Positions 6,157 through 63,156 of a DNA stretch of 64,000 nucleotides are shown here, piece by piece. Every line of letters begins with the position of its first letter. The first letter of the stretch is position 1. The stretch comes from Prochlorococcus marinus str. MIT 9515 (GTDB taxonomy: Bacteria; Cyanobacteriota; Cyanobacteriia; PCC-6307; Cyanobiaceae): contig NC_008817.1 of NCBI RefSeq assembly GCF_000015665.1, positions 310,001 to 374,000 on the forward strand, given 5' to 3'. The notes below the pieces were generated by a model. The model was not told the DNA's origin. It did no database searches and worked only from the letters and a program-made list of their open reading frames with translations. A program made the translations under genes and the position numbers.

Positions 6157-6365
6157 ATGTGTAAGCCATAGTAGTACAAAAATCAACAAAAATTTATTTG
6201 GAACTGACTTGATATACAAATTCTCAAAAAATTGTTTTTGATTCTAATAAATATTCCTCCTATTACTAAAGGGGAATTACTATTATCTAATTATTTTGAG
6301 TCATATATTCAATCTATAATGAATCTATAAATAATAAAAACCCAGTCTTTGACTGAGTTTGAAGG

Positions 6366-6438
6366 TGCCAGGACCCAGATTTGAACTGGGGACACGGCGA
6401 TTTTCAGTCGCCTGCTCTACCAACTGAGCTATCCCGGC
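6366..6438 (-). tRNA. tRNA-Phe (anticodon GAA)
   Basis: The minus strand folds as a cloverleaf: a 7-bp acceptor (GCCGGGA with TCCTGGC, one G-U pair), the D-arm TAGCTCAGTTGGTAGAGC, an anticodon loop reading CTGAAAA with anticodon GAA, and the T-arm GTTCAAATC. The discriminator is A and no CCA is encoded. 73 nt. Confidence 0.97.
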
Positions 6439-7164
6439 TCTAACTTATATACTCTAAATTAAGATGTGTAGTTTGTGAAACCCTTTTCATTAAAATTTTA
6501 TATCTTGATTAAAGAAATAACAAATGAATACTATTTTTTTATATCAATTGCTAATTCTGAAGTTCCTAATGAACTTTTTTGCTCGAAACTATGATGATAT
6601 TAGTAATTTTTCTCTTATTACTATCCACTGGGGACTTTTTAACATCTAATAATCCCTATTTTTGGAATGAAACTGTAAGTAAACATATTTAATTTTTATT
6701 ATCCTTTTAATTCAATTTCAGCTAGACCTTCGAATAATGTATGCAAATAACATTAGTCTTCAACTGGTCTAGGGATAAGTATAGATTCTATACAAGGGTC
6801 ATTACTCGAAATTTTTCATCTCTACTATGGAGTGGAAATAGTTAGATGATTTCTTTCAATTATTTATTTGTCTACTAAAATCTTTTATTTCGAAATCAGA
6901 AAAAAGTTCAAATAAAATTCCATTTCTAGGATTTGAGGCGACTCCGTATATCCAATCCTCAAATTTGTAATGATCTTTTTTAATAATAGCGATTGCTAAA
7001 TTTACAATATCGCTTTTTATCTAAATAGGTAAACAATTTAGAAGCTTTTCAAAAAAAGTAATTCAAGAATCGGTATTTTTAATGACTTTTTAAATTTATT
7101 ATGGATATTGTTACACCACTATTCCTAAAATTTAAACCCCAAAAAAATCATCTCGCATAAATTT
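6439..7164. other. 726-bp region with no secure gene
   Basis: This holds one possible very short plus-strand frame (6591-6692) and one open minus-strand stretch without a start codon (6856-7020) that reads like protein. Otherwise only AT-rich sequence is seen. It separates tRNA-Phe from the 3' end of metK. Confidence 0.6.
6591..6692 (+). CDS. possible 33-aa single-span membrane peptide
   Basis: A short frame starting with two Met codons, then a hydrophobic stretch (ILVIFLLLLSTGDF) and a polar tail NNPYFWNETVSKHI. Prochlorococcus genomes are rich in such one-span peptides, but there is no clear ribosome binding site and no family match. Low confidence. Confidence 0.25.
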   Translation: MMILVIFLLLLSTGDFLTSNNPYFWNETVSKHI

Positions 7165-8406
7165 TTACAAGAAATCTTTTGAGGCCTCTACTAGCTGGGC
7201 TGCTTTTACTTCTACACTTTCCCAAGGAAGGTTTAGATCATTTCTACCAAAATGTCCATAGGATGCAGTCTTTCTGTAAAATTCCCCACCCAATTTTTTG
7301 GGTAGATTTCTTAAATCAAATTCTTTTATTATTGCTGCGGGCCTTAAATCAAAATTGTTTTCTATTAGCTCTTTCAAATTATCTTGAGAAATAACACTAG
7401 TTCCAAAAGTGTCAACAAGAATTGAAATTGGTTTTGCAACTCCAATAGCGTAACTTAATTGTACTTCCGCCTTTTTTGCTAATTTTGCTTTTACAATGCT
7501 TTTAGCTACATAACGTGCTGCATAAGCGGCTGATCTGTCAACTTTTGTAGGATCTTTACCTGAGAATGCGCCACCTCCATGCCTCGCATAGCCACCATAA
7601 GTATCCACAATTATTTTTCTCCCAGTGAGTCCCGCATCTCCTTGAGGTCCTCCGACAACAAATTTACCTGTGGGGTTTACCAAGAATCTTGTCTTTTCCT
7701 TGCTTGGTTTGATTTCTAAATCTTCAGTTACCGGTAAAACAACATTGATCCATAAATCATCTGTTATCTTTTGACGAATTTCTTTCTCATTTATGATGCC
7801 ATCAATCTCGGCTCTGTGCTGAGTTGAAATTAAAATGGTGTTTATTGAGACAGGAACCCCTTTTTTGTAATCAATACTTACTTGGGTCTTTCCATCAGGG
7901 AGGAGATATTCAAGCACGTTCTCATGCCTTACTTTTGCAAGCTGTCTTGCTAATCTGTGAGCCAAGCTAATTGGTAATGGCATTAATTCAGGGGTTTCAT
8001 CGCATGCATAGCCAAACATTATCCCTTGGTCCCCGGCACCAGTATTATTTTCCAAATCCTCATTCAGATCATCTGCTTCATTTACTCCTTGGGAGATATC
8101 AGGTGATTGCTCATCAAGAGCTACTAAAACTGCACAGCTATTTGAGTCAAAGCCTCCCGCTTTTGCACCTTCATAACCAATTTCTTTAATTACTTTCCTT
8201 ACAAGTTTTATATAATCGAGCTTTGCTCTTGAGGTGATTTCACCTGTAAGTAAACAAAGACCAGTATTTACTACTGTTTCGCAGGCCACTCTACTTTCTG
8301 GATCCTCTTTCAATAAAGCATCTAAAACTGCGTCACTTATTTGATCACATATCTTGTCAGGATGACCCTCAGTAACGGATTCAGAAGTAAAGATAAAATC
8401 GCTCAT
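7165..8406 (-). CDS. metK: S-adenosylmethionine synthetase
   Basis: Makes S-adenosylmethionine from methionine and ATP, the methyl donor for the cell, including the several methyltransferases in this window. The protein is 413 aa, the normal size. Visible motifs include [12 protein letters not shown] (residues 14-25), the adenine-binding [12 protein letters not shown] (123-134), [14 protein letters not shown] and the phosphate-binding [16 protein letters not shown]. The start ATG at 8406 is followed by the conserved [13 protein letters not shown]. The next gene upstream on this strand is rpsA, 120 bp away. No SAM riboswitch is evident in that gap. Confidence 0.99.
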
Positions 8407-57781: not shown

Positions 57782-58582
57782 TTATTTCCGAATTTTCCTT
57801 AAAAAGTTAACTATGGATTTAGGCATAATCCTTTTTATAAGACCTGATATAGTTGATTTTCTTAATTTAATAATTAATTGAGTTAATTGCTTAGATTCTT
57901 CTACCCTTATTTGATATAAATCTGGATGAATATAGTTCATAAGGGCTGTTTCTCTAATAGGCTCTATACCTTTTTCTTTAAATATTTTTTCAAATTTTGA
58001 ATTACTTTTTAGGTATAAAAAAGTATTTTGACGGTACCAAACTTCTATCTCTTGATTTTCCCATACCTTTGAACGAAAAAGATCATAGGGCAAGTAACCA
58101 TTTTTGATGAAAATTTTAGCCCAGTAAGAATGCGGTCTCTCATTAAAATGATCAGTACCTCCTTGACCACTAAAAGCAGCGCTAAATAGAATTGTTTCAG
58201 AAAAGTTTGTTAAGTAATTGACAAAGGTAGTTGCTTGTTCTGGTTTTAAATGCTCGGCCACTTCAAGTGACATGGCAAGATCAAATTTCTTATTAACAGG
58301 ATTTTTAATGACAGTAGAACTAAGATCTATTGAATGGAATTTGATTTTTTTATCAAGCATATTTTCTTGGCAGACCCAATCACCATCTATCCCAACCAAC
58401 TCTTTTGCACCTGAATCAGCAAATGCCTTTAACCATGGCCCTCGGCCACATCCAATATCAACAACTTTATTAGGTTTTATAAGTACAGAACTTAAAATAG
58501 ATACATAATGCTTGGCACTAATATATGACCCATTTGTTAGTGATTTATAGAATTGATCATTATAGTTACTCCCTACATTCAT
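57782..58582 (-). CDS. class I SAM-dependent methyltransferase
   Basis: A 266-aa Rossmann-fold methyltransferase. SAM-binding motif VVDIGCGRGPWLKAFADSG (from about residue 36), acidic loop ELVGIDGDWV and FDLAMSLEVAEHLKPEQ. The C-terminal part (GLIKRIMPKSIVNFLRK) is unlike housekeeping enzymes. It recalls methyltransferases in surface-sugar clusters; the acceptor is unknown. Confidence 0.85.
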   Translation of the reverse strand: MNVGSNYNDQFYKSLTNGSYISAKHYVSILSSVLIKPNKVVDIGCGRGPWLKAFADSGAKELVGIDGDWVCQENMLDKKIKFHSIDLSSTVIKNPVNKKFDLAMSLEVAEHLKPEQATTFVNYLTNFSETILFSAAFSGQGGTDHFNERPHSYWAKIFIKNGYLPYDLFRSKVWENQEIEVWYRQNTFLYLKSNSKFEKIFKEKGIEPIRETALMNYIHPDLYQIRVEESKQLTQLIIKLRKSTISGLIKRIMPKSIVNFLRKIRK

Positions 58583-59135
58583 ATAATCTTTTCTCGAGAA
58601 ATCATTAACCTAAATAATATAGCTTATTACAAAAGTTTTGATTCAAATAAATACATAATCTACAGGTTCTGCAAAATAAACTATTGATTCTTAATTAATA
58701 ATCTTCTACCTTATTTCGCATCAATAGCTATTATTTCTGCTAAAAAGGTTCTACTTTTACTTATTGCCCTCAATTTTTAGTTAAATTCCTATCTACATTA
58801 AATACATCTTCAAGACTATATTCCAAATAAGAAGAACATTCCCAGTGAGATATTGTGACTAAAACTATTGTAGTCAGGGTGAATTTGATAAGAAAAACAT
58901 AGCACTTTAATTCGCAATAGTTAAATAAATTTAAACTGAGTTTATTTTGCGGTTCAACAACTTCTAAAATATACTGCCTCTTTTAAGAAGTTTATTATTA
59001 TGTTGAGTTAGATAAGTTTTTCATGAAATAATGATCTATAAAACTGTGCTTTTTAAGACCTAATATGGAAAGTCATCCGCGGAAAAAGAATTATCCATGT
59101 AACATAAAAAAGTCTTAATATTTTCTTAATATTTG
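58583..59135. other. 553-bp gap with possible decayed coding sequence
   Basis: This holds the 70-codon open minus-strand stretch listed separately (58770-58982). The rest is AT-rich and should contain the promoter of the SABATH-type gene at 59136. Confidence 0.5.
58770..58982 (-). pseudogene. start-less open frame, possible gene remnant
   Basis: A 70-codon frame without ATG, GTG or TTG at its head. Translation reads like a real protein: KRQYILEVVEPQNKLSL..., a hydrophobic stretch (CYVFLIKFTLTTIVLVTIS) and a soluble end (SLEDVFNVDRNLTKN). The in-frame upstream ATG is cut off by several TAA codons, so the start may have been lost. Could also be chance. Confidence 0.3.
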
Positions 59136-60188
59136 ATGGTTATAGCAATGACAAAGGGCTACAGCGAGCAGACCGCTGGGGCTAAGCTGTGTATTGACCT
59201 CGCAAGTGATTGGGCAGGTCAATGTATCGAAGCTTTAGATATTGAGAATAATTGTTTTCTCATGGATTATGGTGCTGCAGATGGTGGAACAGCTTCTGAA
59301 TTTTGGGGAAAGATAATAAAAGATATTAAAGAACGAAAAACATCATCGCAAATCTCACTCATCGGAAATGATCTTTTTTCGAATGATAATCAATCTCTTA
59401 TAAATAATCTCTCCCTACATTCTTCTGGTCAAGAATCAGCCTTTACTCTGATTTGCGCTGGCAGTTTTTATGAACAGCTTGTTCCAAATGGTTTAATTGA
59501 TTTTGGTTTTTCCGCTACTGCTATGCACTGGCTAAACAAGAAGGTGGACACTCTTGATGATCATACCCATGTACTTGCATCAAATAATAAAGTTGCAAAA
59601 AATGATTTTCTGGAACAGGCGTTGTATGACTGGAATCAAATTCTTGAGATGAGAAGTAGAGAGCTAAAAGTAGGTGGTAAATTACTGACAGTAAATTTAT
59701 CGAGAGATTACGAAGATAGATACCTTGGAAATAATGGGGGAAGAACAGTAAATGTTCATGACCAAATTCATTCAATTTGGAAGGAGTTGCTCAATGAAAA
59801 AATTATTTCTGAAATTGAATATAAGAATGGTACAATTCAAAATTTTTATAAGTCGCCCGAAGAATTTACTTCACCTTTAACCAATGAAAATTCAGCAGCC
59901 TATAAAAATGGCTTAAGACTTTTAAAGGAAAGAACAGTTTATGTAGATTGCCCCTATAGGAAAAAATGGAAGGAAAACCAAAATACTGAAGAATTTTCAA
60001 TTGGATTGATGGAGACCATTCGAAGTTGGAGCAGGCATAGTTTCGTAGCTGCTTTGGATGAAAATAGTGAAAGAAAAGTCAATCCTGTTGATTTGCTTTT
60101 TGATCGATTAACTTGCCGAATAAATTCTGATCCTGAAAATTGGAGTCTTGATTATGTAGAACATCATCTGATGATGGAGAAAGTTTAA
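59136..60188 (+). CDS. SABATH-type carboxyl methyltransferase
   Basis: A SAM-dependent methyltransferase of the plant salicylate/jasmonate carboxyl-methyltransferase family. 350 aa from ATG 59136; MTKGYSEQ at 59148 is an alternative. The SAM loop MDYGAADGGTASEFW and the family-typical AGSFYEQLVPNGLIDFGFSA followed by TAMHWLNK (compare SFYxRLFPxxSLHxxHSxxxLHWL) are clear, and GGKLLTVN aligns with later motif. It should methylate a carboxylate of a small molecule. It is the first of three coupled genes; the next ATG overlaps its stop by one base (TAATG). Confidence 0.85.
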   Translation: MVIAMTKGYSEQTAGAKLCIDLASDWAGQCIEALDIENNCFLMDYGAADGGTASEFWGKIIKDIKERKTSSQISLIGNDLFSNDNQSLINNLSLHSSGQESAFTLICAGSFYEQLVPNGLIDFGFSATAMHWLNKKVDTLDDHTHVLASNNKVAKNDFLEQALYDWNQILEMRSRELKVGGKLLTVNLSRDYEDRYLGNNGGRTVNVHDQIHSIWKELLNEKIISEIEYKNGTIQNFYKSPEEFTSPLTNENSAAYKNGLRLLKERTVYVDCPYRKKWKENQNTEEFSIGLMETIRSWSRHSFVAALDENSERKVNPVDLLFDRLTCRINSDPENWSLDYVEHHLMMEKV

Positions 60189-61231
60189 TGGTTAATTTAC
60201 AAACTCATTTAAAAAGTGAAGTGGGCGTTCTTGCTGAATATATAAGCGAAGAATTATCAGTTTTCATAGTCGCTGAAAATAAACCTGTTCAGTATCCTTC
60301 TAATGGAGGTTTAAGGCTTCTAAATTATGAAACAGATATTGAATGTCTTCAAGATGGATTTAGACTTGCAAATCTTATGAAGAGTAAACATGATATTTAT
60401 TCGACAGGTTTTTCAGGTGGAAAAGTGGTGGCAAGATCACCAAATATTTCATCAGTTAAAGAAAAACTTATCTCAGTAACATCTGAACTTTTAGAAAATC
60501 TTGGTGGCAGAATGATTACTGGATGTGACTTAAATACTGATATGAATGATATGGAAAAATTATTCAAATTAACTCCTCATGTACTTGCCGCGGTCAATAG
60601 TAAGGTTGATGCTAGTACTGCTACTGCAATGGGTGTAATAGGAGCCTTTGAGGCTTTTAAGGAATTTATACCTTACGATCTTCCCAATGGTGTTTTGGTT
60701 CATGGATGCGGATCAGTTGGAAGTAAAGTCGCCTCTGAATTAATTAAACGAGATATAAAGACTTATGTCGTCGATATAGATACCGAAAAAACTTATATTA
60801 ATGGTGCTATTTCCCTTGGGAATGATAAAAATTGGTATCGTAAGACTTTTGATGTTATATTACCTTGCTCTATATCAGGTCTTATAAATACAAATATTTC
60901 TCAATTTCTTCTTAAGACTAAAGCTATAATTTCAGCTGCAAATGCTCCTTTTGGAAATGATGTGATTCCTGAAAAGTTGAGGAATTCAAATGTTATTGTA
61001 ATTCCCGATCCTTTAGTAAATGCTGGTGCGGTGATAGCTGATTCAATTGAAAGATATGCGCCAGTTAAATGGTCTAATACAAGACCTGAAAAGATTTATG
61101 ATTTTGTCAAGAATGAAGTAAGAAAAAAATGTATTTCTTACCTAGCCTTGGAACAGAATGGATTAAGTTCTCTTGAAATTTTAGAACTAATAAAAAATAA
61201 AAAACAGCAAATCATAGGAGAGAAATTTTAA
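60188..61231 (+). CDS. Glu/Leu/Phe/Val dehydrogenase-family protein
   Basis: 347 aa, close to leucine/phenylalanine dehydrogenases in length and layout. The substrate domain has NGGLRLLNYETDIECLQDGF and STGFSGGKVVARSP, with the Lys of the GGK motif. The nucleotide-binding domain has VLVHGCGSVGSKVASELIKR with acidic VVDIDTEK (suggests NAD). ANAPFGNDVIP and PDPLVNAGAVI also fit. Such enzymes interconvert an amino acid and a 2-oxo acid. Starts on the stop of the methyltransferase gene. Confidence 0.85.
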   Translation: MVNLQTHLKSEVGVLAEYISEELSVFIVAENKPVQYPSNGGLRLLNYETDIECLQDGFRLANLMKSKHDIYSTGFSGGKVVARSPNISSVKEKLISVTSELLENLGGRMITGCDLNTDMNDMEKLFKLTPHVLAAVNSKVDASTATAMGVIGAFEAFKEFIPYDLPNGVLVHGCGSVGSKVASELIKRDIKTYVVDIDTEKTYINGAISLGNDKNWYRKTFDVILPCSISGLINTNISQFLLKTKAIISAANAPFGNDVIPEKLRNSNVIVIPDPLVNAGAVIADSIERYAPVKWSNTRPEKIYDFVKNEVRKKCISYLALEQNGLSSLEILELIKNKKQQIIGEKF

Positions 61232-61235
61232 ATCA

Positions 61236-62420
61236 ATGAATATAAAGATCCCTGAACATGTTGATATAGCCATAATAGGTGGAGGTATGGCAGGCTTAAG
61301 TGCAGCAGCATCATTAAGTGAAATGGGAGTAAAAAATATAGCTGTTTTTGAATCTGAAAAACTTGCACATTCCGAAGGTAGCAGTTTTGGGGAGTCCAGA
61401 ATGTACCGCGAAATGTATTCAGATCCTGTGTTATGCAAACTTGCTAAAGAATCAAATAAATTATGGGCCGAACAGGAATCAATAGCAAAATATTCTCTAA
61501 GAAAAGAACATGGATTATTGTTTTATGGTGAATCCTGGGATGAAGAAACCATAGAAGGTTCTATTCCTGGAGCTCAGAAAGTGATGGATGAGCAAAATAT
61601 ACCCTATGAATTTTTAACATCTGAAAAAATTTCTGAAAGATTTCCTATAAAACCTAAAGAACATTTTGTTGGACTTTTTGAACCAAGTGCAGGATCAATT
61701 TTAAGTGATAGAGCTATTGAAAATTGGATTAAAATCATAAGAAGTAATGGTAATCAGATTTATGAAGGTTGCAAAATTAAAAGAATAGAAGAAAAAAATA
61801 ATTCTCTTGAAATAATAGGAAATCAATCTGTAAGTTTTGATCAATTAATAGTTGCATCTGGAATGTGGACTAATGAATTATTGGAACCAATAGGTTTAAA
61901 ACAAGATGTAAAAATCTGGCCAATGCTTTGGGCACATTATCTGGTTGACGAAGATTTCATAAATAGTTATCCTCAATGGTTTTGTTTCCAAAAATCAAGA
62001 GGAGATGATGGTGGATTGTATTATGGTTTCCCCGTCTTAAGTCGAAATAAAAATAATATACCCAGAATAAAAGTTGGAATTGATTGGACCTCTCCAAAAC
62101 TAATTGGTGGTGATGAGGGCGCAATGAAAAAACCTTTTATGGAACCTCTAATAAAAATGCTGGATGATTTCATTATCAACAATTTCGAGGGTGTTATCGT
62201 TTGTGATGAAACTTTTGTAAGTCCTTATACAATGACAAATGATGTTAATTTTATTCTCGATAAACCCAAGTCAAATATTACTGTTTTTTCTGGCGGATCT
62301 GGCCAGTCATTTAAATTTGCACCAATAATTGGTAAATGTCTTGCGGAAAAAGCATTAAATAAAAATTGTAGTTTTGATATAAGTTGCTGGGAATTTGACA
62401 GATTTCTTACAACAAAATAA
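61236..62420 (+). CDS. sarcosine oxidase / N-methyltryptophan oxidase-like FAD protein
   Basis: 394 aa, DAO/MSOX fold. The FAD motif is IAIIGGGMAGLSAAASLSEM (residues 11-30), and GSSFGESRMYREMYSD is the typical MSOX/SolA block. The C-terminal FSGGSGQSFKFAPIIGK fits the family. The covalent-FAD Cys of MSOX/SolA (in C-x-Y-T-x-T-P-D) appears to be Ser here (VSPYTMTND), so flavin is probably non-covalent; this is my alignment from memory. Oxidises a secondary or N-methyl amine. Starts 4 bp after the dehydrogenase gene. Confidence 0.88.
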   Translation: MNIKIPEHVDIAIIGGGMAGLSAAASLSEMGVKNIAVFESEKLAHSEGSSFGESRMYREMYSDPVLCKLAKESNKLWAEQESIAKYSLRKEHGLLFYGESWDEETIEGSIPGAQKVMDEQNIPYEFLTSEKISERFPIKPKEHFVGLFEPSAGSILSDRAIENWIKIIRSNGNQIYEGCKIKRIEEKNNSLEIIGNQSVSFDQLIVASGMWTNELLEPIGLKQDVKIWPMLWAHYLVDEDFINSYPQWFCFQKSRGDDGGLYYGFPVLSRNKNNIPRIKVGIDWTSPKLIGGDEGAMKKPFMEPLIKMLDDFIINNFEGVIVCDETFVSPYTMTNDVNFILDKPKSNITVFSGGSGQSFKFAPIIGKCLAEKALNKNCSFDISCWEFDRFLTTK

Positions 62421-62688: not shown

Positions 62689-63156
62689 ATGAAATTATTT
62701 GATTTTTTTTTCAAAAATTTGAATAAAAGAGCAGAAATTATTTCGGAAGAATCACTTGATAATTCAAATGATCTTTGGGCTGATTCTGTAACAACTGGTT
62801 GGGAATATACCTGTAATTTATCATTAACAACTCCAAAAATTTGTATTGTAAATGATGGTTTTATTACTAACGATACATCAGTCAAACCAAAGTTAATAGG
62901 AGAACCAAACAATTTTGGAAAAGATGGAGACCCCTCAGGTGATTTTGGTTCTTGGATAAGAAGGCATGGACATGAAGAGGAATTTGAAGAATTGGCAAAT
63001 ATTTCTCAAGATATGATTTATGCAAGACCAACTGATATTGGAAGAATCCCACCGAAATCAAAATTAGAAGTTGATTTTAAAAGTTTTTTAATCGATTTTA
63101 GAAGTATAGTTGAGTCCAATATTTCTGTAGAAAAAAAAATTATTTATGATAAATGA
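62689..63156 (+). CDS. hypothetical protein
   Basis: 155 aa, soluble after an amphipathic N-terminal helix (MKLFDFFFKNLNKRAEII). Central ADSVTTGWEYTCNLSLTTPK and GDFGSWIRRHGHEEEFEELA are distinctive. Its last 11 bp overlap the next gene. No family recognised. Confidence 0.62.
   Translation: MKLFDFFFKNLNKRAEIISEESLDNSNDLWADSVTTGWEYTCNLSLTTPKICIVNDGFITNDTSVKPKLIGEPNNFGKDGDPSGDFGSWIRRHGHEEEFEELANISQDMIYARPTDIGRIPPKSKLEVDFKSFLIDFRSIVESNISVEKKIIYDK

What the first reader, a model, noticed from the sequence alone, without database searches (positions are those of the whole stretch)
59136..62420. Uncharacterised cassette: SABATH methyltransferase, amino-acid dehydrogenase and MSOX/SolA-like oxidase
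Three genes overlap or nearly touch (1-bp overlap, then a 4-bp gap) and so are very likely one operon. A plant-type carboxyl methyltransferase next to a Leu/Glu-type dehydrogenase and an N-methyl-amine oxidase is not a combination I know. It suggests a route that methylates, deaminates or oxidises one small acid or amino-acid derivative. It is the best candidate for an undescribed system here.
Basis: partly seen in the sequence, partly recalled or inferred. Interest (0 to 1): 0.82.

Follow-up and report, generated by a model that had tools for sequence, protein, structure and literature searches.

The report
Probable homarine synthesis operon, ocean cyanobacteria
Three neighbouring genes in this ocean cyanobacterium probably turn the amino acid lysine into homarine, a common salt-balancing molecule in marine plankton whose genetic origin is not reported in any paper I could search.

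Summary
Window 59136-62420 carries a tight three-gene operon in a complete 1.70-Mb Prochlorococcus genome: a SABATH-family methyltransferase (MT), a Leu/Phe/Trp-dehydrogenase-type enzyme (DH) and a NikD/sarcosine-oxidase-type flavoenzyme (OX). All three occur in the same 9 of about 120 Prochlorococcus genomes, and as MT-DH-OX in Synechococcus-type genomes. In all 43 of those, a BCCT-family betaine transporter follows on the same strand, a family otherwise nearly absent from the group. The window genome carries the transporter's relative elsewhere.

The best reading is homarine (N-methylpicolinate) biosynthesis. DH oxidises L-lysine to piperideine-2-carboxylate, OX aromatises that to picolinate as NikD does, and MT methylates the ring nitrogen. 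No enzyme activity was tested. No paper I could search names homarine synthesis genes, but a 2026 homarine-catabolism paper was not readable.

The parts
59136..60188 (+). MT: SABATH/Methyltransf_7-family SAM-dependent methyltransferase, 350 aa; proposed picolinate N-methyltransferase (homarine synthase)
   Evidence: PF03492 86 bits; nearest solved structure M. marinum fatty acid O-methyltransferase 5f2k, then plant O- and N-methyltransferases; start chosen from conserved M-x-I-x-M
60188..61231 (+). DH: ELFV (Leu/Phe/Trp dehydrogenase-type) NAD(P)-dependent amino-acid dehydrogenase, 347 aa; proposed L-lysine 2-dehydrogenase giving piperideine-2-carboxylate
   Evidence: PF00208; model pLDDT 87 matches PheDH 1bw9, TM 0.82; invariant K67, K79, D114 at LeuDH K68, K80, D115; pocket N39 and D285 at LeuDH L40 and V294
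61236..62420 (+). OX: NikD/monomeric-sarcosine-oxidase-type FAD oxidase, 394 aa; proposed piperideine-2-carboxylate oxidase (aromatising)
   Evidence: profile best PDB hit NikD 2oln 150.9 bits > MSOX 133.8 > MTOX 110.9; E107 = NikD E101, D283 at MSOX H269, covalent-FAD Cys replaced by S329
59114..59132 (+). direct repeat CTTAATAT-TTT-CTTAATAT, 3 bp before the MT start; candidate promoter or regulator site (role unproven)
   Evidence: sequence; similar element upstream in all trio-bearing Prochlorococcus loci compared; the promoter scan finds no excess of sigma-70-like sites

Best explanation
The operon makes homarine (N-methylpicolinate), a zwitterionic betaine used as a compatible solute. Proposed steps: (1) DH oxidatively deaminates L-lysine at the alpha carbon, and the 2-oxo-6-amino product closes spontaneously to delta1-piperideine-2-carboxylate. 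(2) OX oxidises this cyclic imine/enamine with O2 in two 2-electron steps to picolinate, as NikD does in nikkomycin synthesis. (3) MT transfers a methyl group from SAM to the ring nitrogen, giving homarine; the order of steps 2 and 3 could be reversed. In marine Synechococcus the operon also encodes a BCCT transporter that probably recovers or exchanges the betaine; in this Prochlorococcus genome the related transporter is unlinked. Shown: gene families, operon, linkage, residue patterns. Inferred: all substrates and products.
For: (a) Strict linkage: MT, DH and OX strong hits in the same 9 Prochlorococcus genomes of a 197-genome search; MT and DH adjacent in 43/43 Synechococcus-type genomes, OX adjacent in every such locus read. 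(b) A BCCT transporter (PF02028, E about 1e-126) follows on the same strand in 43/43; over the cut-off it occurs in 44 of 48 trio-bearing and 1 of 174 trio-less genomes at least 95% complete, which points to a betaine product. (c) OX profile is nearest NikD; E107 = NikD E101 (Ala in MSOX), D283 at MSOX H269, carboxylate-side residues R55, R58, K360 and Y263 kept. (d) DH specificity pocket: LeuDH specificity residues are L40, A113, V291, V294 (PMC2723916); DH has invariant N39 and D285 at 40 and 294, as expected for a positively charged side chain. (e) Metabolite match: homarine in both Synechococcus strains assayed, up to 18 mM (the original 400 mM, corrected 25-fold) and about 0.2 mM in WH7803 (PMC8269262; correction PMC10134881). 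G352, whose contig is 2,366,980 bp (WH7803's size, from memory), carries the full set. WH8102's BetT SYNW0229 is in predicted operon SYNW0229-0233 (PMC2874817), the same five-gene layout as seen here in relatives: BCCT, OX, DH, MT, Ham1.
Against: No enzyme was assayed and no homarine measurement was found for any trio-bearing Prochlorococcus. OX lacks the Cys that covalently binds FAD in MSOX and NikD (S329) and NikD's Trp355 (Q357). D283 matches NikD D276 only by motif; automatic alignment of that NikD stretch is poor. Foldseek on the OX model (pLDDT 75) cannot separate NikD from MSOX or MTOX. SABATH enzymes mostly methylate carboxylates; N-methylation here is inferred from the product. WH8102 itself was not read. 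Homarine also occurs in diatoms, which may make it another way. Most BCCT proteins import betaines, so the transporter alone does not prove synthesis.
Confidence: 0.74

Rival explanations
1. The same enzymes act on another basic amino acid or make another small N-heterocycle: for example ornithine to pyrrole-2-carboxylate, or picolinate methylated on its carboxylate to a volatile methyl ester.
For: The DH pocket argument (N39, D285) fits any cationic side chain; SABATH enzymes are mostly carboxyl methyltransferases and the nearest structure is an O-methyltransferase.
Against: Those products are not betaines and would not explain the BCCT partner in 43/43 genomes; homarine is the product actually measured in Synechococcus.
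Confidence: 0.12
2. An indole/tryptophan route: a ScyB-like tryptophan dehydrogenase gives indole-pyruvate, a SolA-like enzyme oxidises N-methyl-tryptophan, and MT methylates an indole acid such as IAA.
For: DH's best NCBIfam hit is Trp dehydrogenase ScyB and OX's is N-methyl-L-tryptophan oxidase; SABATH includes IAA methyltransferases (own knowledge).
Against: Both hits are below cut-off (100/600 and 188/257 bits); the DH pocket carries invariant Asp and Asn, unsuited to an indole; OX is nearer NikD than MTOX; no role for a betaine transporter.
Confidence: 0.05
3. A catabolic cassette: BCCT imports a betaine or choline, and the sarcosine-oxidase-like enzyme and DH break it down.
For: BCCT proteins are usually importers; OX belongs to the sarcosine oxidase superfamily.
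Against: A SAM methyltransferase and an amino-acid dehydrogenase are not part of betaine demethylation as I know it; MSOX His269 and the covalent-FAD Cys are replaced; trio-bearing Prochlorococcus such as G040 lack BCCT.
Confidence: 0.06

Closest known systems
Nikkomycin picolinate pathway (NikC lysine 2-aminotransferase + NikD piperideine-2-carboxylate oxidase; CrmC/CrmD in caerulomycin)
   Same: Lysine to cyclic piperideine-2-carboxylate, then a NikD-type flavoenzyme (pathway text in PMC11446937; picolinate as NikD's product from own knowledge); NikD is OX's best PDB match by profile
   Different: An NAD(P)-dependent ELFV dehydrogenase in place of the aminotransferase; OX lacks NikD's covalent-FAD Cys321 and Trp355; the proposed product is N-methylated and free, not built into a peptide
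Leu/Phe/Trp dehydrogenases (ELFV family; ScyB)
   Same: Fold and catalytic Lys-Lys-Asp
   Different: Pocket residues 40 and 294 are Asn and Asp; about 21-24% identity to solved members
SABATH methyltransferases (plant SAMT and caffeine synthase; M. marinum FAMT)
   Same: PF03492 domain
   Different: A distinct branch found, among genomes searched, only in Prochlorococcus and Synechococcus; acceptor unknown, proposed pyridine N
Glycine betaine synthesis and uptake sets of marine Synechococcus (GsmT/SdmT next to ProVWX)
   Same: Osmolyte synthesis genes next to a betaine transporter (PMC2874817)
   Different: Different enzymes, and a BCCT instead of an ABC transporter

Membership tests
NikD (piperideine-2-carboxylate oxidase) | Closest to NikD among solved MSOX-superfamily structures | tested here: met
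   Profile: NikD 150.9 bits, MSOX 133.8, MTOX 110.9; single-sequence phmmer puts MSOX slightly ahead
NikD (piperideine-2-carboxylate oxidase) | Acidic pair Glu101 and Asp276 | tested here: inconclusive
   E107 = E101 in three alignments; D283 aligns with MSOX H269 in all three, and with NikD D276 only by the shared motif
NikD (piperideine-2-carboxylate oxidase) | Covalent FAD at Cys321 and Trp355 at the flavin | tested here: not met
   S329 and Q357; so not filed as NikD, only as working like it
NikD (piperideine-2-carboxylate oxidase) | Oxidises piperideine-2-carboxylate to picolinate | not testable with these tools
   needs an enzyme assay
ELFV amino-acid dehydrogenase | Fold and catalytic Lys, Lys, Asp | tested here: met
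   K67, K79, D114 invariant in 22 sequences; TM 0.82 to PheDH
Tryptophan dehydrogenase ScyB | NCBIfam NF035922 at or above 600 bits | tested here: not met
   100 bits
N-methyl-L-tryptophan oxidase SolA | NCBIfam NF008425 at or above 257 bits | tested here: not met
   188 bits
Monomeric sarcosine oxidase | Cys315 (covalent FAD) and His269 | tested here: not met
   S329 and D283 at these positions; Lys265 is kept as K279
SABATH methyltransferase | PF03492 above gathering score | tested here: met
   86 bits vs 29.8
Homarine biosynthesis operon | Present in strains shown to contain homarine | tested here: inconclusive
Homarine biosynthesis operon | Produces homarine from lysine | not tested

The most novel reading that the evidence does not exclude
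This is a previously unassigned complete pathway to homarine: an ELFV-type lysine 2-dehydrogenase, a non-covalent NikD-like aromatising oxidase and a SABATH enzyme acting as a pyridine N-methyltransferase, bundled with a dedicated betaine transporter in marine Synechococcus and kept by a minority of Prochlorococcus strains.
Probability: 0.68. Interest if true: 0.9.

Novelty: new variant of a known kind. Interest (0 to 1): 0.84.

Why it matters
Homarine is an osmolyte and a notable carbon and nitrogen pool in ocean plankton. In 2021 the authors of a diel metabolite study named the lack of genetic information on its synthesis and degradation as the obstacle to tracing it (PMC8269247). Catabolism genes were reported in 2026 (cited in PMC13390433); synthesis genes for a main group of producers would complete the cycle. 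They would let metagenomes be read for homarine production, explain strain differences, and predict which Prochlorococcus feed it to heterotrophs. The set also offers an apparent lysine 2-dehydrogenase and a pyridine N-methyltransferase of an unexpected family.

Tried and rejected
Viral contigs: no relatives of DH or MT. Plasmids: only about 30%-identity DH relatives in unrelated settings; one Rhizobium plasmid has a SABATH MT (30% over 97%) next to a FAD oxidoreductase, but that enzyme is glycine-oxidase/DadA-like, not NikD-like, and the neighbours are a B12/radical-SAM protein and a predicted membrane transporter: a different system. Wider cyanobacteria: only LeuDH/ScyB-level DH matches outside the family. 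Structure search on the OX model did not discriminate. Flanking genes (divergent SAM-methyltransferase, cupin, tenA-thiD) are not constant neighbours of the trio and were set aside. Promoter scan no better than shuffles. Literature searches found no homarine synthesis genes. The 2026 homarine catabolism paper (PMC13236597) is not held, so a mention of synthesis there cannot be excluded.

Full report
OBSERVATION. The window is part of a complete 1,704,176-bp genome of a Prochlorococcus (the size equals that of strain MIT 9515 as I recall it). Three ORFs lie head to tail: MT 59136-60188, DH 60188-61231 and OX 61236-62420. Pfam puts them in Methyltransf_7 (SABATH), ELFV_dehydrog and DAO. None passes a curated NCBIfam cut-off.

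CONSERVATION. A 197-genome search of relatives gave strong hits to each gene in the same nine Prochlorococcus genomes and in no other member of the genus. The 11 genome-contig loci, all Prochlorococcus, keep the order MT-DH-OX. In a search of 222 genomes at least 95% complete from the family, DH gave strong hits in five Prochlorococcus and 43 Synechococcus-type genomes, and the same 48 hold MT; one further genome, G256, holds a DH relative alone. MT is adjacent to DH on the same strand in 43/43 Synechococcus-type genomes, and OX follows in every such locus read. Protein identity between the two groups is about 46-57%. Pairwise distances of the three proteins correlate at 0.97-0.98 overall and 0.60-0.82 within Synechococcus.

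THE FOURTH GENE. In the Synechococcus loci the next gene downstream is a 518-538-aa BCCT transporter, PF02028, E about 1e-126. A family-wide search found BCCT over the cut-off in 45 of 222 genomes: 43 are the trio-bearing Synechococcus-type genomes, with BCCT beside the trio in all 43. The other two are the window genome, where the gene lies elsewhere at about 1,401,973-1,403,532 and is about 61% identical to the operon copies, and one Prochlorococcus without the trio (G072). The association is 44 of 48 against 1 of 174, Fisher p about 1e-40 without correction for shared ancestry. The BCCT family carries betaines, carnitine and choline, so the product is probably a betaine.

OXIDASE. A profile of 21 OX sequences finds NikD first in the PDB (150.9 bits), then sarcosine oxidase (133.8) and N-methyltryptophan oxidase (110.9). 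Three MAFFT alignments agree that E107 matches NikD E101 (Ala in MSOX), R55 and R58 match NikD R50 and R53, Y263 matches Y258, K360 matches K358, and K279 and D283 match MSOX K265 and H269. NikD has Asp276 at the end of a like strand motif (VRCGPD against IKVGID); that equivalence is by motif and, for the NikD-MSOX correspondence, from memory. The covalent-flavin Cys is Ser and NikD Trp355 is Gln, so OX works like NikD but fails part of the NikD definition.

DEHYDROGENASE. The model (pLDDT 87) matches phenylalanine dehydrogenase at TM 0.82. The catalytic residues are invariant. The literature gives L40, A113, V291 and V294 as the specificity residues of leucine dehydrogenase, with 40 and 294 decisive in glutamate dehydrogenase (PMC2723916). 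The ungapped alignment to 6acf puts N39 at 40 and D285 at 294; both are invariant in 22 sequences. One other printed alignment (8gxd) places a two-residue gap there, so the D285-294 match rests on the ungapped reading, which also lines up a conserved Glu three residues on. An acidic residue deep in the pocket suits lysine.

METHYLTRANSFERASE. The nearest solved protein is a fatty acid O-methyltransferase of M. marinum, then plant O- and N-methyltransferases. The acceptor atom cannot be told from sequence.

PATHWAY AND METABOLITE. Lysine to piperideine-2-carboxylate, then oxidation by a NikD-type enzyme, is the published chemistry of nikkomycin-type pathways (described in PMC11446937; picolinate as the NikD product is own knowledge). 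Adding an N-methyl group gives homarine. Homarine was found in both Synechococcus strains tested, up to 18 mM and about 0.2 mM in WH7803 after a 25-fold downward correction (PMC8269262, PMC10134881). The genome with WH7803's length carries the operon and transporter. In WH8102 a 2010 study predicted operon SYNW0229-0233 with BetT at SYNW0229 and suggested the other four genes were missing transporter subunits (PMC2874817); the layout matches BCCT-OX-DH-MT-Ham1 seen here in relatives, though I did not read WH8102 itself. Boysen et al. 2021 state that genetic information on homarine synthesis and degradation is lacking (PMC8269247), and no later paper in the library fills the synthesis half.

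LIMITS. Everything about substrates is inference. Strain names for G handles rest on contig lengths that I recall. The literature library holds only openly licensed papers, and a 2026 homarine catabolism paper could not be opened, so priority is uncertain. Shared ancestry inflates the linkage statistics, although the all-or-none pattern across scattered Prochlorococcus strains and two local settings argues that the genes are kept or lost together.

Noticed in passing
L143:6974-8533 (window genome, about 1,401,973-1,403,532, - strand); L144:6347-7915 (G072): BCCT betaine transporter in the window genome, unlinked from the trio; a 93%-identical copy in a Prochlorococcus without the trio, which may scavenge the betaine.
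   Followed up: partly
L098, MT region about 6198-7229 (- strand), genome G260: MT carries a 4-bp deletion (slippage in CGCACGCA) that breaks the frame while DH, OX and BCCT remain: a natural test strain for the homarine claim, if not a sequencing error. G356 (L094) has a 1-bp break in a draft contig.
   Followed up: partly
L104:5049-6080 (G256, - strand): Orphan DH relative (47-50% identity, same N39 and D285 pocket) with no MT, OX or BCCT match in the genome; it may serve lysine oxidation alone.
   Followed up: partly
   Followed up: no
upstream of MT in L110, L111, L120, L126-L128, L132, L133, L135: Imperfect palindrome TGTCA-N8-TGACA, like a CRP-family site, and a strongly conserved TGTACGGTG...CGCTGACGAGGTC leader in Synechococcus.
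   Followed up: no
window 62689-63156: Hypothetical protein with no Pfam match that sits beside the trio in several Prochlorococcus loci and is absent from ten trio-less genomes; a weaker second copy lies at 1,074,984 in the same genome.
   Followed up: partly
L145:5944-8339 (Rhizobium sp. CB3171 plasmid): A SABATH methyltransferase 30% identical to MT, next to a DadA/glycine-oxidase-like enzyme, a predicted membrane transporter and a B12-radical-SAM protein: an unrelated, undescribed-looking cassette.
   Followed up: partly
window 57782-58582 (- strand): Divergent class-I SAM methyltransferase upstream of the trio, not found beside the trio in relatives.
   Followed up: no
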